Assembly: GCA_903910205.1 (NCBI GenBank)
Contig: CAIVYW010000148.1
Location: 1 to 32,028 of the forward strand
Direction of reading: 5' to 3'
DNA: 32,028 nt
Source: an uncultured Methylococcaceae bacterium
GTDB taxonomy: Bacteria > Pseudomonadota > Gammaproteobacteria > Methylococcales > Methylomonadaceae
This document shows positions 1,278 through 24,118 of the stretch, piece after piece (within the stretch, counting starts at the first letter, position 1; the number at the start of each line of letters is the position of its first letter). The position numbers and the translations under genes are program-made. The notes under the pieces are model-generated. The model was not told the origin of the DNA and did not search any database. It saw only the letters and a program-made list of their open reading frames with translations.

Positions 1278-2585
1278 ATGAAATATCAGGCTTATCCTGA
1301 GTATAAGGATTCTGGGGTTGAGTGGTTGGGTGAAGTACCAGCGTATTGGAGATTCGCCCGTTTTAAATTTTTTGCAAATGTACAAAAAGGAAAATTACCT
1401 AAAAAAATTGTTGCGGATGAAGATGGAAAATTTCCGCCATATTTAACGATGGATTATTTGAGAACAGGGTATCCAGAAAATTTTGTTGATGATAAAAGTC
1501 TTGTTCCAATTAATGACGGTGAGGTTCTGCTTTTATGGGATGGGGCTAATGCCGGTGAATTTATTAAAAGTCGATATGGCGTAATATCATCTACCGTCGC
1601 ACATATAAAATTTATTAGCCAATTTAATCATAGATTTTGTTGGTATTTAGTTAAATCTCTTGAAATTGAATTGCGTACATCAACAATAGGAATGGGAATT
1701 CCACATGTATCAGGTGAAAAATTAAATAATTTAATTTTTTATGAGCCATTATTTTTAGAACAACAACAAATAGCCAACTTCCTTGACCACGAAACCGCTA
1801 AAATCGATACCCTGATTGAAAAACAACAACAGCTTATCAAGCTGCTCAAAGAAAAACGTCAGGCAGTCATTAGCCATGCCGTGACCAAAGGTTTAAATCC
1901 CAATGCCCCCATGCGTGACTCCGGTGTTGAGTGGTTGGGTGAAGTACCTGAACATTGGATTGTTGCTCAATTAAAATTTAATACCGTAGAAATGCAAACA
2001 GGGCCATTTGGTAGCCAACTTCATGCTGAAGATTATATTGATGACGGAATCCCCCTTGTGAATCCTGCTCACATGACTGATGGAAAAATAGTACCTGATT
2101 TAAAAGTTAGTGTAGATGAAGAAACCTGGCACCGTTTAAAGCGTCATCAACTATTTGAAGGTGATTTAATTTTAGCTCGACGAGGCGAATTGGGACGTTG
2201 CGCGATCGTCACAAAAAAACAAGAAGGATGGATTTGCGGTACAGGCAGCTTAAAAGCTAAGTTAAATAATCGCCTTATTCCAGAGTATTCTTATCTTTTG
2301 ATTACATCAGATGGAGTTGTTTCAGAGTTATCTTTAGAGTCAAAAGGCTCAACTATGGATAACTTAAATACAGAAGCTCTTGGAAGAGTAAGATTGCCAG
2401 TTCCACCTGTAGACGAGCAGAGAAAAATATTAGATTACGTAAATGATGTGTCAGGTAAGTTTAGAAATCTTATTGACAAAGCCAGTTCTGCAATCGCGTT
2501 AATTCAAGAACGCCGCTCCGCCCTAATCTCCGCCGCCGTTACCGGTAAAATTGATGTGCGGCATTGGAATGGAGTGAGCGCGTGA
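1278..2585 (+). CDS. hsdS: Type I restriction enzyme specificity subunit HsdS (two TRDs)
   Basis: 435 aa; internal repeat 'DSGVEWLGEVPAYW' / 'DSGVEWLGEVPEHW' and coiled-coil 'FLDHETAKIDTLIEKQQQLIKLLKEKRQAVI'. Confidence 0.95.
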   Translation: MKYQAYPEYKDSGVEWLGEVPAYWRFARFKFFANVQKGKLPKKIVADEDGKFPPYLTMDYLRTGYPENFVDDKSLVPINDGEVLLLWDGANAGEFIKSRYGVISSTVAHIKFISQFNHRFCWYLVKSLEIELRTSTIGMGIPHVSGEKLNNLIFYEPLFLEQQQIANFLDHETAKIDTLIEKQQQLIKLLKEKRQAVISHAVTKGLNPNAPMRDSGVEWLGEVPEHWIVAQLKFNTVEMQTGPFGSQLHAEDYIDDGIPLVNPAHMTDGKIVPDLKVSVDEETWHRLKRHQLFEGDLILARRGELGRCAIVTKKQEGWICGTGSLKAKLNNRLIPEYSYLLITSDGVVSELSLESKGSTMDNLNTEALGRVRLPVPPVDEQRKILDYVNDVSGKFRNLIDKASSAIALIQERRSALISAAVTGKIDVRHWNGVSA

Positions 2586-4499: not shown

Positions 4500-7400
4500 A
4501 TGAGCAGTAAAGCAAGTGAACTGATCTTTCAAAACGACATGATTGCTCATTTGCTTGCCAATGGTTGGCTATTGGGTAAACCAGAAAATTACAATCGTGA
4601 CCTGGCTTTATACCCAGAAGACTTGCTGGGCTTTGTGCAAGAAACCCAAGAAGCACAATGGCAAAAGTTTTGTACCCTGTACCCGAATAACCCAGAAGAA
4701 AAGTTTTTGGAGCGTGTCGCCACTCAGCTCAACAAGGCTGATCCTAATGCGGCCAATAAAGAGCTACGTACCTTTGGCACCTTGGGGGTGTTGCGCCATG
4801 AACTGCGTGATCGTGGTACTCGTTTTAGTTTATGTCAGTTTAAGCCTGAACATGACTTAAATCCCGAGACTTTAGTGCGTTACCAGAAGAACCGTTGTCG
4901 TGTCGTGCCAGAGTTGGTTTATAGCCCATGGGCAAATGAAGCGCATTTGGCTGAAACCGGCGCAAAAGCCAAAGCGTGGCGCATTGATTTGGTGTTGTTT
5001 GTCAATGGCTTACCGATAGCAACGCTGGAGTTAAAATCAGAGTTTAAACAAGCCGTACACAACGCGATTAAGCAATATAAAATCACGCGTCATTCCATAG
5101 ATCCTGCCACCAAAAAGCCAGAGCCGTTATTAACCTTTAAGCGTGGTGCGCTGGTGCATTTTGCCGTCAGTCAATATGAAGTGTATATGGCGACACGTTT
5201 AGAAGGTAATGACACTTACTTTTTGCCGTTTAACAAAGGCACTAAAGACGGTGCTGCCGGCAATGAGGTACCGGAGGACATTAACCAATACGCCACCGAT
5301 TATTTGTGGAATGAAGTGTTGCTACCCGATAATTTACTCAACATTCTTGCTCGCTTTGTACATTTACAAATTGAAGAAAAAGAAGATTGGCAGGGACGTA
5401 AGTATAAAAAAGAGACGCTCATTTTTCCGCGTTATCATCAATGGGATGTGGTTACAAAACTGATTGAAGCGGCTCGTACCGAAGGGCCTGGTCATAAATA
5501 CCTGATTCAACACAGCGCCGGTTCTGGCAAGTCTAATTCTATTGCTTGGGTTGCGCATCAGCTCTCGTCAATTTACGATGCCAGTGGCCATAAGCAATTT
5601 GATTCCGTAATCATTGTGACGGATCGAACGGTATTAGATGACCAGTTGCAAGATACCATCTATCAGTTTGAACATGTCGATGGTGTGGTCGGCCGTATTA
5701 ATAACAAAGAGGGCGATGGATCAAAATCTGAAAAGCTCGCTTATGCACTGGAAAATTCTCAACCCATTATTATTGTCACTATTCAAACCTTTCCGCATGT
5801 TTTAAAAGCGATTGAGAACAGCGTCAGCTTAAAAGAGCGTCGTTATGCCATTATTGCCGACGAGGCGCATTCTTCACAAACCGGTTCTACTGCGCGTCAG
5901 CTAAAAGAAGTGTTGATGATCGATGGACTAAGCAGTGATGATGAGGAAGTGACTGCCGAAGATATTATGGCGGCTACTATCGCTTCACGTCGCGCGTCTA
6001 GCAATGTGAGTTATTTGGCGTTTACCGCGACACCTAAAACCAAAACATTGGAGTTATTTGGCCGTTTGCCCAAGCCTGATGAGGCGCCGTCTAAAACCAA
6101 TCTTCCTCAAGCGTACCATGTTTACAGTATGCGCCAAGCCATAGAAGAAGGCTTTATTCTGGATGTGTTAAAAAACTACATTAATTACAAAGTAGCTTAT
6201 AACCTAGCGTTAAAGATACAGGGTACTGATCAGGAGGTCGAAAGTAAACGTGCTAAGGTAAAATTGAATCAATGGGTCAGGCTGCATGACTATAATATCG
6301 CTCAAAAAGTGCAAGTCATTGTTGAGCATTTTAAAGACAATGTAATGGGGCTATTAAACGGTCAAGCGAAAGCGATGGTTGTGACCAGTTCACGTAAAGA
6401 AGCGGTGCGCTACAAGCATGGCTTTGATAAATACATCAAAGCCCAAGGCTATCAAAACATTCATGCGATGGTCGCTTTTTCTGGTGAAGTGGAATTTAAC
6501 GCTAAAGACCCAAACTCTGAGGGCATGATTGGCGAAAAGTTTACCGAATACAATATGAATCCAAATCTCAAAGGCCGAGATCTGCGTAAAGCCTTTGATT
6601 CTGATGATTACCAAGTCATGATAGTTGCCAATAAATTTCAGACCGGTTTTGATCAGCCCAAGCTCTGTGCCATGTATGTGGATAAAAAGCTCGGTGGTGT
6701 GGAATGCGTGCAAACCTTGTCGCGGCTTAATCGCACTTATCCAGGCAAAGCCGAAATGGGTACCTTTGTGTTGGATTTCTTCAATGATCCAGAAGACATA
6801 CTCAGTGCCTTTCAGCCGTATTACCAAACAGCCGAATTGGCCGATGTATCGGACCCTGATTTAATCTTTGATTTGTTTGAAAAGCTTCGAGCTGCCAAAA
6901 TTTTTAACTGGCAGGAAGTTGAACAATTTTGCGAGGCGTATTTTGTAAAGAGCAAAAGCAATGCGGCCATTGCAAATATCTGCAAACCTGCGGTAGAACG
7001 TTGGCAGAAACGCTATAAATCAGCTATTGAGGCTTACAAATTAGCCAGAGACATGTTTGAGCGTACCAAGAAGACGGCTGATGCTGTGTTAATTGCCAAT
7101 GCCGAAAATAGCTTCAAAGAATGCAAAAAAGAAAAAGATGCGCTTGAAATCTTTAAAAAGGATTTAGGTACCTTTGTACGTTTCTATGAATTCATGTCGC
7201 AGATTGTTGATTACGACAATAAGGAGCTGGAAAAATTAAGTCTGTACGCAAGGAACTTAAGACCTATGCTGCGTGAAACCTTTATGGAAGAAGATGGCAT
7301 AGACTTGAGTAGTGTGGTGCTGAGCCATTATCGCCTTTCCTTGCTACGCCATCAGGACTTGAAGCTAAAAGAAGATTCAGCCGATTACAAACTTGTACCT

Positions 7401-7751
7401 GGCGAAGGCTTGGGTACGGCAAAACCCAAAGACAGGCATGAAGCATTTATTTCTCAGATTATTAGCCGCTTAAATGAGCTCTTTATGACTGACCATTTAA
7501 CGGAACTTGATCTGGTAAATTATGCGCAGACTATCAGAGATAAAGTCAGTGAAAATACGTTGGTTATGAAGCAGATTGCCAATAATTCTACTGAGCAGGC
7601 CATGCTGGGAGATTTTAGCAAAGCCGTTGATGATGCGGTCATGGATAGTAGTGAGGCCCATAATAATCAGATGATGCAATTGTTATCCAATCCTGCAAAG
7701 GCCGCTGATTTTGCAAAGGTGGTGTTTGATTTGTTGACGTTGGCGAATTGA
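4500..7751 (+). CDS. hsdR: Type I restriction enzyme R subunit HsdR (locus 1)
   Basis: 1083 aa; nuclease-like '[25 protein letters not shown]', Walker A 'HSAGSGKSNSIAW', 'IIADEAHSS', 'LAFTATPK'. Confidence 0.95.
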   Translation: MSSKASELIFQNDMIAHLLANGWLLGKPENYNRDLALYPEDLLGFVQETQEAQWQKFCTLYPNNPEEKFLERVATQLNKADPNAANKELRTFGTLGVLRHELRDRGTRFSLCQFKPEHDLNPETLVRYQKNRCRVVPELVYSPWANEAHLAETGAKAKAWRIDLVLFVNGLPIATLELKSEFKQAVHNAIKQYKITRHSIDPATKKPEPLLTFKRGALVHFAVSQYEVYMATRLEGNDTYFLPFNKGTKDGAAGNEVPEDINQYATDYLWNEVLLPDNLLNILARFVHLQIEEKEDWQGRKYKKETLIFPRYHQWDVVTKLIEAARTEGPGHKYLIQHSAGSGKSNSIAWVAHQLSSIYDASGHKQFDSVIIVTDRTVLDDQLQDTIYQFEHVDGVVGRINNKEGDGSKSEKLAYALENSQPIIIVTIQTFPHVLKAIENSVSLKERRYAIIADEAHSSQTGSTARQLKEVLMIDGLSSDDEEVTAEDIMAATIASRRASSNVSYLAFTATPKTKTLELFGRLPKPDEAPSKTNLPQAYHVYSMRQAIEEGFILDVLKNYINYKVAYNLALKIQGTDQEVESKRAKVKLNQWVRLHDYNIAQKVQVIVEHFKDNVMGLLNGQAKAMVVTSSRKEAVRYKHGFDKYIKAQGYQNIHAMVAFSGEVEFNAKDPNSEGMIGEKFTEYNMNPNLKGRDLRKAFDSDDYQVMIVANKFQTGFDQPKLCAMYVDKKLGGVECVQTLSRLNRTYPGKAEMGTFVLDFFNDPEDILSAFQPYYQTAELADVSDPDLIFDLFEKLRAAKIFNWQEVEQFCEAYFVKSKSNAAIANICKPAVERWQKRYKSAIEAYKLARDMFERTKKTADAVLIANAENSFKECKKEKDALEIFKKDLGTFVRFYEFMSQIVDYDNKELEKLSLYARNLRPMLRETFMEEDGIDLSSVVLSHYRLSLLRHQDLKLKEDSADYKLVPGEGLGTAKPKDRHEAFISQIISRLNELFMTDHLTELDLVNYAQTIRDKVSENTLVMKQIANNSTEQAMLGDFSKAVDDAVMDSSEAHNNQMMQLLSNPAKAADFAKVVFDLLTLAN

Positions 7752-14864: not shown

Positions 14865-17800
14865 TTAATTAATAGCCAATTCATTAGCAATCATTTCCGC
14901 CTGCTTAAGCACGGTTTCAGTGGCAAGTAACTGCATGTCAGGTGGATAGCCGTATTGCCGCAATAGTCGTTTGATAACAACCTTTAGTTTGGCTTTTACA
15001 TTTTCTTTTATTGTCCAGTCAATGGAGGCATTTTCTCTAACTCGCTGCGTTAATACAATCGCTAATTCACGTAATTGATCATGCTGCATAAGCTTTTTTG
15101 CACTGTCATTACTGGCTACTGCCGTATAAAACGCATACTCAAAATCGGTTAAGCCTAGTGTTTTTGCTTGCGAATCAGACGCGACAATTTCTTTACTAAT
15201 CCGAATTAATTCATCCATGACTTCGGCGGCAGTCAGAATTTTGTTCTGGTATTTCTTAATGGCGTTTTCTAACATTTCCATCAAGGATTTGCTTTGCACT
15301 AAGTTCTTTTTGGCACGGACTTTCAACTCATCGTTAAGTAATTTTTTAAGCACTTCCAGTGCGATATTCTTATGTTCCATGCCTTTTAATTCTAGCAAAA
15401 ACTCTTCTGAAAGAATCGAAATATCCGGCTTTTTTATACCCGCAGCATCAAATATATCCACCACTTGTTCTGACACTAAGGCTTTATCAATGACCTGCCG
15501 AATAGTAGTTTCTATTTCTTCATTGGTTTTGCCGGAACCGGTGCTGTCAAACTTTGCCAGCCGCGCCTTGACCGCCTGAAAAAAAGCCACTTCATCTTTG
15601 GCATCCATGGCTTGTTCGTGAGGTATAGCGATCGCAAAAACCTGAGATAAGGCGGTAACTTGGTTAATATAGCGTTTTTTACCCTCATCAAGACCTAAAA
15701 TATGTTCTTCAGCGGCCAGTATGAGTGATAATTTTTGCGAAGTCTCGGCGGCAAAATAATCCTCGTAAGGAAATCCGTGGTACATAGCGGACACCACTTC
15801 AATTTTTTCAAGCATTAGCTGCACAGCTTGTTCCTGCAACAACGTTGGGTCGCCTCTCCCGCCTGCATCAGAATAAAACGATAAGGCTTCTTTAAGGTCA
15901 GAGGCAATACCCAGATAATCCACCACCAAACCGCCAGGCTTATCTAAATAAACACGATTTACCCGTGCAATCGCTTGCATGAGGTTGTGGCCTTTCATGG
16001 GTTTGTCGATATACAGCGTGTGCATACTGGGTGCATCAAAGCCGGTCAGCCACATATCGCGAACGATCACTAGTTTGAGTTCGTCATCATTGTCTTTCAT
16101 ACGTTCCGCCAAAGCTTTACGTTGCTTCTTGGTAGTATGGTGTTTGGCGAGTTTGTGGCCATCCGACGAAGAGGCCGTCATCACCACTTTGATGACACCT
16201 TTATTCAAGTCATCCGAATGCCATTCCGGCTTTAATTTAATGATTTCTTCATATAGGTCAACAGCTATTCGGCGTGACATGTTTACCACCATGCCTTTAC
16301 CGGCAAATACTTCTTGCCTCGCTTCAAAGTGGCTGACAATATCTTGTGCGATATTCTTGATGCGTTGCGCACTTCCTACCAAAGCTTCAAGTTGTGTTCG
16401 CTTGGACTTAGCTTTTTGGGTTTCGGACAATTCGTCTTGGTCCAGTTCTTCATCCAATTGGGCAACGAGTTTTTTTCCTTCATCGCTTAATCCGACTTTA
16501 GCTAAACGGCTTTCATAGAAAATACGCACCGTTGCGCCGTCTTCCACGGCTTGGGCAATGTCGTAAATGTCGACATAATTACCGAATACCGCCGGTGTGT
16601 TCACATCCGTTTTTTCAATCGGTGTGCCGGTAAAGCCTAAATAAGTGGCATTTGGCAAGGCATCGCGCAGATATTTGGCAAATCCATACACTACTTTTTT
16701 GCCTATTACATTGCCGTGCACATCTTTTTCGTCGATGGTTTTAGCATGGAATCCATATTGGGTGCGATGTGCTTCATCTGCAATCACCACAATGTTACGG
16801 CGGTTTGATAATTCCTCATAAACATTGCCCTCTTCAGGCTGAAACTTTTGGATCGTCGAAAAAATCACCCCGCCGGATGCGACTTTTAGCAGGTCTTTGA
16901 GCTGCCCTCGATCTTCAACCTGCTTGGGTTCTTGCCTCAATAATTGAGCAGATGCCGCAAAAGTATCAAATAATTGATCGTCCAGATCATTGCGGTCGGT
17001 AATCACTAACACGGTAGGATTATCCAAAACCAAAACAATCTTTCCGGTATAAAACACCATAGACAGTGATTTGCCGCTGCCTTGGGTATGCCAGACCACA
17101 CCGGCTTTTTTATCCCCTTTCGGTTGGCTTCTGACACCTGTTACACCGTAATTTTCCGGTGATTCCTGAACATCTTTTTCATGACTAAAATTAGCCGCCC
17201 GCAAGGTCGAGACAATGGCTGCATTCACGGCATAATATTGGTGATAAGCCGCCAGTTTTTTAACGGTGCTGATACTAATCACGCCGGTTTGCGAGTCTTC
17301 TTTTTTGGATTTCTCAAATACGATGAAATGACGAATCAAATCCAGCAAGGTGGCCTTGTTCAACATACCGTTAATCAAGGTTTCGAGTTGGCTTACCAAA
17401 TACGAGGCTTCCGCTTTGCCATCGGTTGATTTCCACGTCATAAAACGGCTCAAACCAGCCGACAACGAACCCGCTTTTGCTTCCAGACCATCGGAAATGA
17501 CCAATATGGCGTTATAGGTGAATAAACTTGGAATGGTGTGCTTGTAAGTGTCCAGTTGCTGATAAGCGGATTTAATCGTAGCATTTTCATCAACGGCATT
17601 TTTAAGTTCGATGACCACCAAAGGCAAGCCATTAACAAACAGCACAATATCGGGGCGTTTGTTCTGATTGTTCTCAATCACCGTAAATTGATTGGCTACG
17701 ACAAACTCATTATTTTCCGGATGAGTAAAATCAATCAGCCAGACCAAATCCCCGCGATCCTGGCCGTCTTTTTGGTAATTAACATTTACGCCTTCAGTCA

Positions 17801-18077
17801 ACAGTCGATGGAAGGCTTCATTATTAACCAGTAATTCCGGCGAATGGATGCGTTCGACTACTTTAACGGCTTCTTGTAAAGCGTGATGAGGAACGATTGG
17901 GTTGATACGTTGCACCGCTACACGTAAACGCTCGATAAGCATGATTTCATCATAACGGCTGCGTTCTGGCCGATCACCGTCGGGAGCAATGTCAGGAGCG
18001 TAAATATAGTCGTAACCTAGGTGTTCAAATAGCTTAATGGCGAAGGCTTCAATCGCATTTTCTGTTAGTTTATTCAC
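14865..18077 (-). CDS. hsdR: Type I restriction enzyme R subunit HsdR (locus 2)
   Basis: '[33 protein letters not shown]', '[20 protein letters not shown]', Walker A '[11 protein letters not shown]', '[13 protein letters not shown]'. GTG start at 18077 preferred over the track's TTG at 18125. Confidence 0.95.
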
Positions 18078-18153
18078 GCTGTTTGGGCTCTTTTTTACGG
18101 GTGATTTGCTGCACGATTTTATCAAACTCGTAACGATGGGGTTTATATTGCAT
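18070..18153 (-). CDS. Possible 27-aa leader or micro-ORF overlapping the hsdR start
   Basis: Hand translation [27 protein letters not shown]; stop overlaps the hsdR GTG start by 8 nt. Confidence 0.25.
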
Positions 18154-18238: not shown

Positions 18239-18784
18239 TTAAGTTAATTTGTTGTTTGCAGTCCAAATATCGATATCCACCCCGCTAAAATCAGCGTCAT
18301 TAGTTACCAATATGCATTGATGTTCCTTACATGTTCTAACGATTAACTCATCATTAAAATCAGTGTTGGCTAAACTGATCGTAGAAATATCAGCTTTATC
18401 AAATAACTTTCCAACCATCTTAAAATGTTTCAAAATTCGATTGTTGACTACTATTTCAATGTCTTGAGAAACTTGAATGCCTTCAGCCGTTGAACGGAAA
18501 CGCTTAAAATTGCACTGATTTCTAGTCAGTCCTTTAGTTTTTAAATAGTTTTCATATTCAAAGCGAAGAAAAGCGTTAATAAATTCAGACAATACAAATA
18601 CATCGACACAAAGAACGTTTTGCATTTTTAAACACTGCGCAAAAATTGCTGTGTAAGCATTAATGGCCCATTGAGTTGAAGGGGCCGCAACTGGACTAAA
18701 TAAATACAACAATACGTTAGTATCAAAAAATAACTGCCTATCTTTAACCTGGGCAACATCCATCGCTTTAATCCTTAAGCTCAT
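18239..18784 (-). CDS. PIN-domain protein (putative RNase) in RM locus 2
   Basis: 181 aa; 'LFFDTNVLLYLF', 'VFVLSEFINAFLRFEY', 'DFNDELIVRTCKEHQCILVTNDADFSGVDIDIWTAN', the PIN acidic residues. Confidence 0.85.
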   Translation of the reverse strand: MSLRIKAMDVAQVKDRQLFFDTNVLLYLFSPVAAPSTQWAINAYTAIFAQCLKMQNVLCVDVFVLSEFINAFLRFEYENYLKTKGLTRNQCNFKRFRSTAEGIQVSQDIEIVVNNRILKHFKMVGKLFDKADISTISLANTDFNDELIVRTCKEHQCILVTNDADFSGVDIDIWTANNKLT

Positions 18785-19140
18785 TCATCTTCTCCCATAA
18801 TAAGCTTAACCGATTCTTCCAGCCATGAAGGATCTTTGTAGTAAAGCTTGGCGGTTTCAATCACTCGGCGCAATAATGCAATGTCCGTATCTGCCATATC
18901 GACAACATTTACCAATTTACGAATCTTTTCTTCAGTAAAGTCCCTGTAAAGTTGGCCAATCGCGGTATTTAAAAACGCTGAGGTCAGCATTTCTACATTA
19001 TGAAATGAAATCTCGACTGATTGTTCTTGCTGCAAGGCTTTGCTAATCGAGTTAAACACGGCATCGCCATCTTTAGCCTCAACACAAAATCCGTTACCTA
19101 CCAGATTGAACACCGATATTGTTATAGGGCTCATAACCAT
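18781..19140 (-). CDS. STAS-like protein (DUF4325 family)
   Basis: 119 aa, 'VEISFHNVEMLTSAFLNTAIGQLYRDFTEEKIRKLVNVVDMADTDIALLRRVIETAKLYY', DUF4325-like. Confidence 0.8.
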   Translation of the reverse strand: MVMSPITISVFNLVGNGFCVEAKDGDAVFNSISKALQQEQSVEISFHNVEMLTSAFLNTAIGQLYRDFTEEKIRKLVNVVDMADTDIALLRRVIETAKLYYKDPSWLEESVKLIMGEDE

Positions 19141-19146
19141 TTCCTC

Positions 19147-20010
19147 TTAAAATAAAGCTGTTTTTTTCGCTTCACTAACCAGCGAATAATTATTTGTGTC
19201 GTCTGTCCGAAACGAAACATTAACAATAGTACCGGGGAATCCCTTGTAAAGTTTCTCTACCTGCTCACCCGAACTATCATATTGATAAAAACCATCACCG
19301 CTAATAATTTGTAACTTACCATTATTACGCAGGATAAATTCACTTAATATAGCCAAGCCGATTCCTCCTGATACACCTATCTTCGTGGTATTTCTATCCT
19401 TAACTGCCCAACGTATGGCTTCAACAGACGAAATTTTTTTGTCAAAGCGCTGTAAAAATTTTTGTTTAAAACCAATTCCCGTATCGACGATACAAAACTC
19501 AATCGTATGGTATTTAGGAAAAAATTGCCCACAAGTATAAACGTGCTTGGTTTCACTGTGGAGTTGTGCATTAACGAATAATTCAAGCATGGCTTCGGTC
19601 ATTTTTTTACGCAAACCCACGCTCATATTGGGTAATTCTGGCCGATTTAGAAACTGGGTACTCACATATTCACGAAAATAACGCCCGTCATCCGGCTTCA
19701 TTTTTTTATATTGAATGGTTGTGCCGTAAGAGTCTACTTGGAGAGGAAAACCAAAATGACTTAAAAAACCATTTTTTTGCAGAATACTTTTAATGCCGTT
19801 ATTAATATGATCAAAAACAACATCGTTTAAATTATCTTCCAGTAAATCCAGCACCGCCCCTAACGGAGCGGCCATATTGGCATTAAACCATTCATACAAT
19901 GAAACAGGGATTTTCTCAAAATACTTTTCTTTATTCTTATCATATAAATTAGCGATTTGAGCATAATCCGATGATGAAGAGTGGATGTTACATAAATTGT
20001 TGCTTGTCAT
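19147..20010 (-). CDS. GHKL/HATPase-domain ATP-binding protein (anti-sigma-kinase-like)
   Basis: 287 aa; N box 'EAMLELFVNAQLHS', G1 'IVDTGIGF', G2 'KIGVSGGIGLAIL'; N-terminal 'YEWFNANMAAPLGAVL' looks STAS-like. Confidence 0.85.
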   Translation of the reverse strand: MTSNNLCNIHSSSSDYAQIANLYDKNKEKYFEKIPVSLYEWFNANMAAPLGAVLDLLEDNLNDVVFDHINNGIKSILQKNGFLSHFGFPLQVDSYGTTIQYKKMKPDDGRYFREYVSTQFLNRPELPNMSVGLRKKMTEAMLELFVNAQLHSETKHVYTCGQFFPKYHTIEFCIVDTGIGFKQKFLQRFDKKISSVEAIRWAVKDRNTTKIGVSGGIGLAILSEFILRNNGKLQIISGDGFYQYDSSGEQVEKLYKGFPGTIVNVSFRTDDTNNYSLVSEAKKTALF

Positions 20011-21128
20011 AAGGCTACGCGTACTTCGCCGCTTATTAATTTAGGTAACAGGTTATCGCGGAGGGTTTCTAGGGTTTGGATTTGTATCTGGTTGATATTT
20101 AATTTTTTAAATAGCAATTTTACTTGCTGGTTAAATTTTTCAATTAGCAATGTTGGAGGAATTTTAAGTTGAATGCCATGAGCCAGATTTTTATTAAGTC
20201 CTGGAACAGCAGAGTCTGAATTCATCTCGCCCAAGTTTAAAGTCTTTAGCAAAAAATATTCAAAAAACAAACCATCTGATTTAATTTTACTGGTTATATA
20301 GAAAGTTGTATCGATGGGGAAAAAATTGTGAAACGAGTAGTTTATTACGCCCAAAGTTCCTTTTCTTCCAGTGATTATTCCAGGTGCTTCCACTAAGTAT
20401 TCATTGTGATAACCGACTATTCCACTAGAACCATAAACGGGAAAGCCGTACCCGCTTCTTTCTTGGTCTCGTAAAGTTTTACCATAATTAAACTCAACCA
20501 AATCGTTTAATGTTCCTTCCTCCCAGTCAGCCCTCGCCTCAACCACAAACCACTGCCGGAACAGCGTTTCAGCCATAGCTTCGAGAGTCTTGTTTTGGCG
20601 GTGCAGTAGGTCTATTTTATCGTCCAAACTACTGAGAACGGCGGCAATGGCTTTTTGTTCTGGGAGTGGCGGAATTAAGATTGGTATATCCTTAATGTTA
20701 TAAATTGGCAATTTAGGCTGAGTTGAACCAACGTTTCTTTTTTCAATCTCTTCTTGACCATTTGGAGATTTTAAAAAATAGTATAGGAAGTGGTTATTAA
20801 TACCTTTTGATTTTTGAACAAATTTTACGCAATTTTCCGTTAAATTTGCGCCATCTAACTCATTTGAAATAATCCCTGTAAATCCAATTGAGCCTACAAT
20901 TGAAAGTATGACATCATCTTTATTAACGATATAACGAGAAATACTTTTCTGGATTTCTTTTGTGACAAATTGAAGCCCTTGTTTAGTTATCCATTTGCTA
21001 CTTAAATCTGTTACCCGTATATATGGATGATTGGTTTCATAATCTACAAGTAAATCACCTTTAGGTAGTCTTTTCCCACCTTTGACATCAAATAAATCCC
21101 CTAATTTATACTCCCGCCACTCACTCAT
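20007..21128 (-). CDS. hsdS: Type I restriction enzyme specificity subunit HsdS (locus 2)
   Basis: 373 aa; 'EWREYKLGDLFDVKGGKRLPKG', 'IPPLPEQKAIAAVLSSLDDKIDLLHRQNKTLEAMAETLFRQWF', second TRD, 'LRDNLLPKLISGEVRV'. Confidence 0.96.
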   Translation of the reverse strand: MSEWREYKLGDLFDVKGGKRLPKGDLLVDYETNHPYIRVTDLSSKWITKQGLQFVTKEIQKSISRYIVNKDDVILSIVGSIGFTGIISNELDGANLTENCVKFVQKSKGINNHFLYYFLKSPNGQEEIEKRNVGSTQPKLPIYNIKDIPILIPPLPEQKAIAAVLSSLDDKIDLLHRQNKTLEAMAETLFRQWFVVEARADWEEGTLNDLVEFNYGKTLRDQERSGYGFPVYGSSGIVGYHNEYLVEAPGIITGRKGTLGVINYSFHNFFPIDTTFYITSKIKSDGLFFEYFLLKTLNLGEMNSDSAVPGLNKNLAHGIQLKIPPTLLIEKFNQQVKLLFKKLNINQIQIQTLETLRDNLLPKLISGEVRVAL

Positions 21129-21144
21129 AACTCAACCCTTGCAG

Positions 21145-21507
21145 TCATAACGCATGTTCCTGTAACCACTCCCGCAACGCCTCATTCATCCGCACTTGCC
21201 AATTATTGCCCGCCGTCCGAAAAGCCGAGATAATATCAGCGTCATACTCAATCGTTGTGGTAACTTTTTGACTGCTCGCAGGCTTGATTAAATGTGGAAA
21301 CAATTCAGCCGCTGTTTTCGCCTCGCTAAACATTGCCGTTGTCCATTCCGGGTTTTCCTCATCAATCAACTCAGGATTAAAAAAACTTTCAACCGTATTA
21401 TTGAATCGTTCTACTGCGCATTGCGCAATAGCTTCATCCATTTCTTCAAGGCTAACACTACACTCTGCCTTTATAATGCCGCATATATCTTTAAAATTGT
21501 CAGTCAT
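21145..21507 (-). CDS. BrnA-like antitoxin-family protein without a BrnT partner
   Basis: 120 aa; 'ENPEWTTAMFSEAKTAAELFPHLI' plus 'TTIEYDADIISAFRTAGNNWQVRMNEALREWLQEHAL'; extra ~45 aa N-terminus. Confidence 0.7.
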   Translation of the reverse strand: MTDNFKDICGIIKAECSVSLEEMDEAIAQCAVERFNNTVESFFNPELIDEENPEWTTAMFSEAKTAAELFPHLIKPASSQKVTTTIEYDADIISAFRTAGNNWQVRMNEALREWLQEHAL

Positions 21508-22553
21508 AATTCAATCCTCGCCAAACTCAACCCATCATTCAATTCTGCTTCAATCGCTTCAATACTTGGCAAAGAAGATTTAAATTCATCGGGCAAACTT
21601 TGAGTAATAATATATTCACTTACGCCAATAGGCTTATGAATATCTTTTAACGCATATTCAACAACAGTCGCATTTTTTGATTTACAAATCAGTATACCAA
21701 TCGTGGCATTATCCGATTCTGATTTTAAAACCCCATCTACAGCCGACACATAAAAATTCAATTGACCGATAAACTCAGGTTTGAATTTAACCGTTTTCAG
21801 CTCCACTACGACATAGCAATGCAATTTGACATGATAAAACAACAAATCAATAAAAAATTCGTCGCCTGAAATGTCGAGTTTATATTGCCGTCCCAGATAA
21901 GAGAAACCCACCCCCAATTCCAGCAATAAACGCGTCACCTGAGCGACTAACGCCGCTTCCAGCTCTTTTTCATTGTGCTTTTCGGTGAGTGATAGAAAAT
22001 CAAAAATTTAGGGGTCTTTTAAGGTTTCACTGGCTAAATCCGATTGCGGCGCGGGTAAGGTTGTTTGAAAATTGCTGATGGCTTTACCTTGTCGCTGATA
22101 AAGATTGCTTTCGATTTGATGCGTCAAAACTACCCGAGACCAGTTGTTTTGTAGGATTTTCTGCACATAAAATACCGCTTCATTCGGATTTTTAATTTTG
22201 CTGAGAATGACGAGATTGTGTCCCCAAGGAATTTGCGCAACAAGTTGTTTCGCAATTGCGGGTTGCTCTGACCAAAACCTGTACCATTGGCGCATTAGCT
22301 CTAAATTTCTTTTGGAAAAGCCTTTCATATCAGGAAACTCAGCCTGTAAATCACGGCTCAGTTGTAATAAAAAACCATCTCCCCATGCTGCAGTTTGCTG
22401 TTGAGTAACAATACGCTCAGCTAAATCCCAATAAAGCTGTAATAAGGCTTGATTAACCATAATCGCTGCTTTGATTTGTACGCTTTGTACCTGCTGTTTG
22501 ATGTCTTGAACAAAGGCTTTGTAATCATCGGTTTTAATGAGGCTGTCAGTCAT
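21504..22553 (-). pseudogene. DUF1016/YhcG-family nuclease gene interrupted by one in-frame TAA
   Basis: N-part ORF 22008-22553 ends '...SETLKDP*'; the same frame continues 'IFDFLSLTEKHNEKELEAALVAQVTRLLLELGVGFSYLGRQYKLDISGDEFFIDLLFYHVKLHCYVVVELKTVKF...'. Stop at 22008-22010. Confidence 0.85.
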
Positions 22554-24118
22554 AACACCACTCTTGCCAAATTCTCTATAATCTCCCGATTCAATTCCGT
22601 TTCTTCCAGCAACTGCGCTTCAAACTCCGCTTTCAGCGCAGTAAACCGCTTCTTAAAATCAAAGTCATCTTCATCATCCGGCAAGCCCACATAACGCCCA
22701 GGTGTCAGCACATAATCAAGTTCTTTGACCCGTGCAATGGGTGCGGAACAACAAAAGCCTTTTACATCTTCATAGTTTCCATCAGGATTGCGCCAGTTGT
22801 GGTAGGTATTAGCGATTTGTTGAATATCTTCTTCTGATAATTCACGGGTGCGACGATTGATTAAATGCCCCAAATTACGCGTATCAATAAACAAAATTTC
22901 TCCGCTCCGGTTTCTAAATTTGCCGTTGCTGCGGTTACGGCTCATAAACCACAAAGCAGCAGGAATTTGTGTATTCAAAAACAGTTTGGCGGGCAGGTTA
23001 ACGATGCAGTCGATCAGGTTGCCGTCTTCAATCAGGGCTTTGCGGATGTCGCCTTCACCGCTGGTTTTAGAGGTCAATGCCCCTTTAGCCAATACGATGC
23101 CCGCTTGGCCGCTAGGGGCAAGGTGATAAGCAAAGTGTTGTAACCAGGCAAAGTTGGCATTTCCGGCAGGAGGTGTACCGTATTGCCAACGGCCATCAGT
23201 GCGTAACAGTTCTCCGCTCCAATCGCTGACATTAAACGGTGGGTTGGCAATGATGTAATCGGCTTTCAAGTCTTTGTGGGCATCGTTCAAAAACGAGCCT
23301 TCGTTGTTCCATCTGACTTGTGAGCTATCAATGCCGCGTATGGCGAGATTCATTTTAGCCAGCCGCCAAGTGGTTTGGTTGCTTTCTTGCCCGTAAATGG
23401 AAATATCATTGACGCGACCTTGATGTTCTTCGACAAACTTTTCCGATTGCACAAACATTCCGCCGGAACCACAGCATGGATCAAACACCCGCCCTTGATA
23501 AGGTTCAAGCATTTTTACCAAGAGTTCGACAATGCTGCGAGGAGTGTAGAACTGTCCACCTTGTTTGCCTTCGGCCAGTGCAAATTCACCCAAGAAATAT
23601 TCAAATACATGCCCTAACACATCCGCACTACGGGCTTTTGCATCACTCAACGCGATATTGCCAACCAGATCAATCAAACCGCCAAGGCTGGCCGGATCAA
23701 GATTTTGCCGTGCAAACACCTTCGGCAATACGCCTTTGAGCGAAGGGTTTTCTTGTTCGAGCGCATCCATAGCTTCATCAACAAACGAGCCAATTTTTGG
23801 CTGCTTGGCTTGGGCTTGCAAGAATGACCAACGTGATTCAGTCGGTACAAAGAACACGTTTTCGGCTTTGTATTCGTCTTTATCTTCGGGGTCTGCGCCG
23901 GCATATTCACCTTCGCCTGCATGCAATTTAACAAAGTGTTCTTCAAAAGAATCAGAAATATATTTCAGGAAGATCAAGCCTTGCACAATGTGTTTGTACT
24001 CGGCGGCATCGATATTTTTCCGCAGTTTGTCGGCGGCTTTCCATAGTTGTTTTTCTAAAGGTTCTTGATTTTCAGCTTTGGCCTTCGCCATATATTTTCC
24101 TTGATTTTTGAGGTGCAT
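22550..24118 (-). CDS. hsdM: Type I DNA methyltransferase subunit HsdM (locus 2)
   Basis: 522 aa; 'GQFYTPRSIVELLVKMLEPYQGRVFDPCCGSGGMFVQ', 'DYIIANPPFNVSDW'. Confidence 0.97.
   Translation of the reverse strand: MHLKNQGKYMAKAKAENQEPLEKQLWKAADKLRKNIDAAEYKHIVQGLIFLKYISDSFEEHFVKLHAGEGEYAGADPEDKDEYKAENVFFVPTESRWSFLQAQAKQPKIGSFVDEAMDALEQENPSLKGVLPKVFARQNLDPASLGGLIDLVGNIALSDAKARSADVLGHVFEYFLGEFALAEGKQGGQFYTPRSIVELLVKMLEPYQGRVFDPCCGSGGMFVQSEKFVEEHQGRVNDISIYGQESNQTTWRLAKMNLAIRGIDSSQVRWNNEGSFLNDAHKDLKADYIIANPPFNVSDWSGELLRTDGRWQYGTPPAGNANFAWLQHFAYHLAPSGQAGIVLAKGALTSKTSGEGDIRKALIEDGNLIDCIVNLPAKLFLNTQIPAALWFMSRNRSNGKFRNRSGEILFIDTRNLGHLINRRTRELSEEDIQQIANTYHNWRNPDGNYEDVKGFCCSAPIARVKELDYVLTPGRYVGLPDDEDDFDFKKRFTALKAEFEAQLLEETELNREIIENLARVVL

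What the first reader, a model, noticed from the sequence alone, without database searches (positions are those of the whole stretch)
18239..20010. GHKL ATPase, STAS-like (DUF4325) and PIN-domain cassette embedded in a type I RM operon: candidate undescribed regulatory or effector module
Seen: between hsdS and hsdR lie three same-strand genes. The hsdS stop and ATPase start overlap (ATGA, 20007-20010), the ATPase to STAS-like gap is 6 nt, and the STAS-like and PIN genes overlap (ATGA, 18781-18784), so all appear translationally coupled to hsdS. The ATPase keeps N, G1 and G2 motifs and its N-terminus looks STAS-like; the PIN protein keeps its acidic residues. Known: HATPase and STAS proteins form partner-switching pairs (anti-sigma / anti-anti-sigma logic), and PIN domains are commonly RNases. 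Inference: a nucleotide-gated switch could control a PIN effector, perhaps as a backup when restriction fails or is inhibited. I know of no established description, but I cannot search.
Basis: partly seen in the sequence, partly recalled or inferred. Interest (0 to 1): 0.85.

Follow-up and report, generated by a model that had tools for sequence, protein, structure and literature searches.

The report
VapKSC toxin switch inside restriction operon
Three genes nested between the specificity and cutting genes of a bacterial DNA-restriction system are a kinase-controlled toxin switch of the recently published VapKSC kind, and the same cassette turns out to be spliced tightly into restriction operons of several unrelated types, which suggests that cutting foreign DNA may help trigger the toxin.

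Summary
In detail: three co-directional genes lie between hsdS and hsdR, with the overlaps and motifs described. The trio is not undescribed. It is VapKSC (Chambers et al., EMBO J, June 2026, PMC13373217): VapK, a STAS-GHKL kinase; VapS, a STAS antitoxin; VapC, a PIN toxin. The only significant PDB matches of the DUF4325 and PIN profiles are Escherichia VapS (E 8e-21) and VapC (E 1.5e-14), entry 9z7o. The phospho-acceptor Ser (window S54) aligns with VapS Ser48 and is S/T in 80 of 80 homologues. VapC D21 aligns with catalytic Asp28. VapK keeps the SpoIIAB-type E-x3-N-x3-H box in 81 of 81. The trio keeps one order in 83 loci across many phyla, including archaea.

What I found in none of the papers I could read is the recurrent nesting. 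At least 42 of 87 loci adjoin restriction-modification genes of different types (hsdS/hsdR, type III mod/res, DrmD/DUF1156, type ISP). In 25 of 27 cases the kinase start overlaps the preceding RM gene by exactly 4 nt. In relatives of this type I system the hsdS-hsdR interval carries other effectors (Fic, RloC/PrrC-type AAA_13, reverse transcriptase). Functional coupling to restriction is plausible but untested.

The parts
19147..20010 (-). vapK: STAS (N-terminal) + GHKL kinase; N-box E143/N147/H151, G1 D176-x-G178-x-G180, G2 G215-G216-x-G218
   Evidence: ATGA overlap with hsdS
18781..19140 (-). vapS: STAS-like (DUF4325) antitoxin; predicted phospho-acceptor S54, C-terminal extension
   Evidence: Pfam DUF4325 6.3e-17; PDB 9z7o_A Escherichia VapS E 8e-21; S54 is S/T in 80/80
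18239..18784 (-). vapC: PIN-domain nuclease toxin; acids D21, E67, D142, D145, D163, D165
   Evidence: Pfam PIN 3e-9; PDB 9z7o_C Escherichia VapC E 1.5e-14
20007..21128 (-). hsdS, type I specificity subunit, upstream gene coupled to vapK by ATGA
   Evidence: Methylase_S 5.2e-43, PADLOC Specificity_I
14865..18125 (-). hsdR, type I restriction/translocase subunit, downstream of vapC (start may be GTG at 18077)
22550..24118 (-). hsdM, type I methyltransferase
21145..21507 (-). BrnA-type antitoxin gene, no BrnT listed beside it
21504..22553 (-). yhcG/PDC-S02 (DUF1016_N + YhcG_C nuclease) interrupted by one in-frame stop

Best explanation
The trio is a VapKSC system placed inside a type I RM operon. 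In the resting cell VapS binds the VapC dimer and blocks it. When VapK is activated it phosphorylates VapS (here most likely on S54), VapS lets go of VapC, and the PIN nuclease cuts RNA and stops growth, limiting phage spread. Identity and the residues needed are shown here by sequence; the antitoxin and phospho-mimic steps are shown by experiment for the Escherichia homologue (PMC13373217); ssDNA as the VapK trigger was inferred there. My further inference: nesting between hsdS and hsdR makes the cassette co-expressed with the restriction enzyme, and restriction cleavage/translocation plus repair is a local source of the ssDNA that would arm VapK, so that restriction and growth arrest act in sequence. 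The confidence below is for identity and switch; I put the restriction-trigger step at about 0.4.
For: Only significant PDB matches of the DUF4325 and PIN profiles are Escherichia VapS and VapC; Escherichia VapS in turn finds only vapKSC trios in the plasmid and phage collections. Window S54 aligns with VapS Ser48 and D21 with VapC Asp28; S54 is S or T in 80/80, while the position I take as equivalent in VapK's own STAS domain is D/N/H and never S/T in 81, so substrate and sensor STAS domains look distinct. E143, N147, H151 81/81; SpoIIAB is among the best fold matches (prob 1.00, TM 0.65-0.70 on the target). Fixed order in 83 loci; VapK, VapS and VapC distances correlate (r 0.91/0.84/0.78). 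RM nesting: at least 42/87 loci; exact 4-nt overlap with the preceding RM gene in 24/26 plus the window, over hsdS, mod, res and DrmD genes. Mechanism text.
Against: The residue equivalent to VapK F54 (published ssDNA contact) could not be placed. About half of the trio loci show no RM gene in view, so RM cannot be required. None of the 18 nearest type I relatives examined carries the trio, so in this RM family it is one cargo among many.
Confidence: 0.82

Rival explanations
1. Passive cargo: the module is an ordinary, self-sufficient VapKSC that uses the RM operon only as a safe, well-transcribed landing site; there is no functional link to restriction.
For: About half of the loci lack RM neighbours. 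The hsdS-hsdR interval of related systems holds unrelated cargo: Fic/RhuM, AAA_13, M78 peptidase, DUF3800, reverse transcriptase, AAA_21, DEAD helicase.
Against: Repeated association with different RM types, always co-directional and almost always with the same 4-nt overlap to the upstream RM gene, is more orderly than random landing; the labels need at least 21 changes on the VapK tree. Yet operon compaction alone could also produce such overlaps.
Confidence: 0.4
2. PrrC-like guard: the RM enzyme itself holds VapK or VapSC silent by contact, and phage inhibition of the RM enzyme (Ocr- or Stp-like) releases the toxin.
For: Same kind of site as PrrC, which is embedded in a type IC locus and fires when EcoprrI is inhibited (PMC12707154; PMC2610378); an AAA_13 (PrrC/RloC-class) gene fills the slot in L183; start codon coupled to hsdS or mod, the DNA-recognition genes.
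Against: VapS is already a dedicated antitoxin, so a second silencer is not needed; the trio occurs without RM neighbours in many genomes and an Escherichia operon on its own protects against Bas42.
Confidence: 0.15
3. The trio regulates RM expression, e.g. VapC cleaves hsdR message to delay restriction on entry into a new host.
For: Position between modification and restriction genes; PIN domains are RNases (established knowledge).
Against: Found without RM in about half of the loci; also placed after a res gene or before methylase genes (L080, L072, L076); the Escherichia homologue is a growth-inhibiting toxin.
Confidence: 0.05
4. A true anti-sigma/anti-anti-sigma circuit controlling transcription.
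For: GHKL-STAS pair related to SpoIIAB/RsbW and STAS anti-sigma antagonists.
Against: The third gene is PIN, not a sigma factor, in 83 loci; neither VapK nor VapS of the window shows a DNA-binding domain in Pfam.
Confidence: 0.02

Closest known systems
VapKSC (Chambers et al. 2026, EMBO J, PMC13373217)
   Same: Three genes, same order and domains; phospho-acceptor Ser, catalytic Asp and kinase box conserved; PDB 9z7o is the only significant match of both VapS and VapC profiles.
   Different: Here nested between hsdS and hsdR with a 4-nt overlap to hsdS. The sections read report 289 operons, 36% within 10 kb of an immune gene, but no nesting inside RM operons (its datasets could not be opened).
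CapK/CapS (same paper)
   Same: GHKL kinase phosphorylating a STAS protein on a conserved Ser; 88 of 443 lie immediately downstream of a predicted RM system.
   Different: CapK has an N-terminal HTH and CapS a C-terminal wHTH; they repress transcription. Neither domain is found in the window pair.
PrrC/EcoprrI and RloC
   Same: RNase effector gene embedded in an RM locus; an AAA_13 gene of this class occupies the same slot in a relative (L183).
   Different: ABC ATPase plus anticodon nuclease in one protein; PrrC is silenced by the RM enzyme; no kinase, STAS antitoxin or PIN domain.
VapBC toxin-antitoxin
   Same: PIN nuclease toxin.
   Different: Antitoxin is a phosphorylatable STAS protein with its own kinase, not a VapB.
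SpoIIAB/SpoIIAA and RsbW/RsbV partner switching
   Same: GHKL kinase fold and STAS substrate with Ser on the second helix.
   Different: Target is a nuclease toxin instead of a sigma factor; the kinase carries its own N-terminal STAS domain.

Membership tests
VapKSC | Three-gene operon in the order STAS-GHKL kinase, STAS protein, PIN protein | tested here: met
VapKSC | VapS homologous to Escherichia VapS with conserved Ser/Thr at Ser48 | tested here: met
   9z7o_A E 8e-21, S54 aligned; S/T in 80/80; direct identity 32% over 88 aa
VapKSC | VapC homologous to Escherichia VapC, catalytic Asp28 and other acids kept | tested here: met
   9z7o_C E 1.5e-14, D21 aligned; acids near-invariant
VapKSC | VapK kinase residues (GHKL N-box, G1, G2) | tested here: met
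   fold match to SpoIIAB
VapKSC | VapS C-terminal region after the STAS domain (residues 94-116 in Escherichia) needed for inhibition | tested here: inconclusive
   Window VapS is 119 aa and has a tail beyond the Pfam domain (24-85), but its inhibitory role is unknown
VapKSC | Aromatic ssDNA contact equivalent to VapK F54 / CapK W68 | tested here: inconclusive
   Escherichia VapK sequence not at hand; conserved W41 (78/81) and F82 (79/81) are candidates
VapKSC | VapC toxic, neutralised by VapS, released by phosphorylation; phage protection | not testable with these tools
   Needs bench work
PrrC/RloC anticodon nuclease | ABC (AAA_13-type) ATPase with Arg-Glu-His nuclease motif | tested here: not met
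   Pfam shows PIN, DUF4325, HATPase only
PrrC/RloC anticodon nuclease | Effector gene embedded in an RM operon | tested here: met
   this is position only, not membership
CapK/CapS | HTH in the kinase and wHTH in the STAS protein | tested here: not met
VapBC | VapB antitoxin next to the PIN toxin | tested here: not met
   Neighbour is DUF4325; NCBIfam VapC model hit is far below cut-off (13.4 vs 80 bits)
Anti-sigma/anti-anti-sigma system | Sigma factor as target, encoded with the pair | tested here: not met
   No sigma factor in the trio or among frequent neighbours

The most novel reading that the evidence does not exclude
RM-nested VapKSC is a distinct, recurrently evolved branch in which the toxin switch is wired to its host restriction enzyme: VapK reads ssDNA made by that enzyme's motor and nuclease (or reads the enzyme's inhibition), making it a convergent counterpart of PrrC that works with type I, type III, ISP and DrmD-type systems.
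Probability: 0.33. Interest if true: 0.75.

Novelty: new variant of a known kind. Interest (0 to 1): 0.45.

Why it matters
The published VapKSC work could not test directly what activates VapK. Copies spliced into restriction operons, with the kinase start overlapping the specificity or modification gene, point to restriction-derived ssDNA as a natural trigger and give compact native systems in which restriction can be switched off by one mutation. It also extends the idea that RM loci carry suicide genes (PrrC, RloC) to a kinase-controlled toxin-antitoxin cassette, an exception to the 2012 generalisation (PMC3506569) that immunity loci do not encode typical antitoxins.

Tried and rejected
(1) 'Undescribed module': rejected after the literature search. 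(2) Paper searches on DUF4325 and on PrrC plus PIN gave no other description. (3) DefensePredictor PIN systems DS-3 and DS-5: different partners; the text has no STAS or GHKL. (4) Search for the Escherichia VapK sequence to place F54: plasmid and phage searches returned only the Deinococcus and MT837343 trios, and the viral-contig scan gave no answer. (5) Distant trio L112 as a bridge for F54: STAS N-terminus too different to decide. (6) A conserved membrane partner in PIN-less HATPase-DUF4325 loci: only L134 and L137 are clearly homologous and the hydrophobic N-terminus is modest, so kept as a note. (7) Dead module: rejected, all catalytic residues are present. (8) Fold library: the strongest E-value (1.8e-5) was an HSP90-family model over part of the chain; SpoIIAB covers more of its own domain and was preferred as the informative match.

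Full report
What is there. Pfam names DUF4325, PIN and, weakly, HATPase_c. The wider operon reads hsdM, a yhcG/PDC-S02 nuclease gene split by one in-frame stop, a BrnA-type antitoxin gene, hsdS, the trio, hsdR. The own genome holds one DUF4325 gene only.

Conservation. A plasmid of Deinococcus gobiensis, an unannotated 'Bacteriophage sp.' contig and a gammaproteobacterial genome carry the same three genes in the same order at 25-43% identity. A scan of 85,462 species genomes returned 80 loci; with the other loci, 83 have all three genes. Where one or two genes of a close VapK homologue are missing the contig usually ends there; the remaining VapK-only loci (L007-L010, L018) are distant GHKL homologues. 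Hosts span Pseudomonadota, Nitrospirota, Campylobacterota, Planctomycetota, Chloroflexota, Acidobacteriota, Poribacteria, Bacteroidota and Methanosarcinales among others. Within the class about 1% of sampled genomes have a close homologue, so it is sparse. Pairwise distances of the three proteins correlate at r 0.78-0.91, as expected of parts that travel together.

Residues. In 80-81 aligned members the GHKL N-box E143, N147, H151 and the G1/G2 glycines are invariant or nearly so, DUF4325 position 54 is Ser (70) or Thr (10), and the PIN acids are near-invariant. The N-terminal STAS part of the ATPase has D, N or H at position 45 of its WFDAN-M motif, which I align by eye with the usual phospho-serine. 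The AlphaFold2 model of the ATPase is confident (pLDDT 90.7, pTM 0.89); SpoIIAB structures are among its best PDB matches, and a profile search links its N-terminus to RsbS (E 0.0045).

Identity. A literature search found Chambers et al. 2026 (PMC13373217), which names this gene trio vapKSC: CapK-like kinase, STAS antitoxin, VapC toxin. They show VapC toxicity lost in D28A, rescue by VapS, loss of rescue and of binding in S48E, a VapS2VapC2 crystal structure, and about 2-log protection against phage Bas42 that is lost in VapC D28A, VapS S48A and VapK F54A. ssDNA activation is shown for CapK and inferred for VapK. My DUF4325 and PIN profiles each have one significant PDB match: Escherichia VapS and VapC of entry 9z7o, with S54 over S48 and D21 over D28 (S48 assigned by subtracting the 18-residue tag implied by the chain length of 134 against 116). 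That settles membership on sequence. The ssDNA-contact residue could not be mapped.

RM nesting. By phmmer with RM representatives, at least 42 of 87 loci carry RM genes around the trio: hsdS-[trio]-hsdR (window, L019, L021, L023, and L006 as far as its contig goes; L057 in another order), type III mod-[trio]-res (for example L046, L047, L050, L052, L055, L056, L058, L071), DrmD-like-[trio]-DUF1156-DUF499 (L076, L078, and L072 up to the contig end), type ISP on either side (L064/L065, L085/L087) and Eco57I-type methylases (L026, L089). Representatives were checked with Pfam. Among immediate neighbours N6_N4_Mtase occurs in 10 of 116 against at most 2 of 123 distal genes, and ResIII in 10 against 4; one PADLOC type III methyltransferase model matches 13 of the 116. 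In 24 of 26 loci with an RM gene just upstream, plus the window, the kinase start codon overlaps its stop by exactly 4 nt. On the other side res starts 3-6 nt after vapC in L050, L052, L055 and L071, and DUF1156 overlaps vapC in L072 and L076. On the VapK tree the RM-type labels need 21 changes; starred branches alone force at least 4 for type III, 3 for type I, 2 for ISP. That implies several associations, though many type III cases are one cassette spread across phyla (Mod 65-82% identical to that of L055), and the counts cannot tell gain from loss.

The slot. In 18 genomes with near HsdR homologues, the interval upstream of hsdR has varied cargo in nearly all, hsdS abuts hsdR with no cargo in one (L196), and none has the trio. 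Ten cargo genes were identified: three RhuM-Fic, one Fic_N/Fic, AAA_13 (the PrrC/RloC class), M78 peptidase, DUF3800, reverse transcriptase, DEAD helicase and AAA_21. Insertion of RNase effectors in type I loci is known from PrrC and the Campylobacter rlo genes (PMC2610378; PMC12707154). So VapKSC is one interchangeable cassette in an effector slot.

Mechanism and limits. Shown here: identity, intact residues, order, RM nesting, 4-nt overlap. Shown elsewhere for a homologue: antitoxin action, effect of the phospho-mimic, phage protection. Inferred: ssDNA triggering of this VapK, translational coupling, and restriction as the ssDNA source. The main rival is that the module is a self-sufficient passenger. 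RM calls rest on phmmer with ten seeds, some hits are fragments, and many 'no RM' contigs are short, so 42 of 87 is a rough figure for this sample and not a population estimate. The loci were found by VapK similarity to four seeds, one of them clearly RM-nested and another (L005) beside res-like fragments, which may favour RM-nested relatives.

Wider family. Of the other DUF4325 loci in Pseudomonadota genomes (28 genomes), three are trios; most of the others have a GHKL protein adjacent to or fused with DUF4325 and no PIN gene found. The kinase-STAS pair is therefore the more widely conserved switch and the third gene is exchangeable, in line with the CapK/CapS and VapKSC comparison in the paper.

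Noticed in passing
L181-L198, interval hsdS-hsdR: In relatives of this type I system the hsdS-hsdR interval is a hypervariable effector slot: RhuM-Fic, Fic, AAA_13, M78 peptidase, DUF3800, reverse transcriptase, DEAD helicase, AAA_21, several unknowns.
   Followed up: partly
L134, L137, L149, L151, L153, L155: GHKL-DUF4325 pairs followed by a ~140-210 aa gene without Pfam match, in some with a hydrophobic N-terminus; L134 and L137 are homologous. Possible sister switches with another effector.
   Followed up: partly
L136:5351-6355 (also L133, L135, L145, L147): Single proteins of ~335-350 aa with DUF4325 and, at least in L136, a GHKL domain behind what looks by eye like an HTH.
   Followed up: no
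L095:3-2885: VapK fused behind a large P-loop protein of ~670 residues in one open frame, followed by VapS and VapC; the trigger input may differ.
   Followed up: no
window 21504-22553 (-): yhcG (DUF1016_N/YhcG_C) reads in one frame but for a single in-frame TAA near 22008-22010; decayed gene or sequence error. A homologue is intact in L021 (3179-4258).
   Followed up: yes
window 21145-21507 (-): BrnA-type antitoxin gene between yhcG and hsdS without a BrnT toxin listed beside it.
   Followed up: no
window 1278-2585 and 4500-7751 (+): A second type I RM system on the other strand of the same window (HsdS-like and HsdR-like, HsdR related to the first at phmmer E 3.9e-22).
   Followed up: no
L046, L055, L069, L071, L073 and others: Type III Mod proteins next to vapKSC are 65-82% identical to that of L055 across several phyla, suggesting transfer of the whole mod-vapKSC-res cassette.
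   Followed up: partly
L003 (MT837343.1), L099, L101: vapKSC trios on contigs filed as viral, so the module may travel on prophages or be misfiled host DNA.
   Followed up: no
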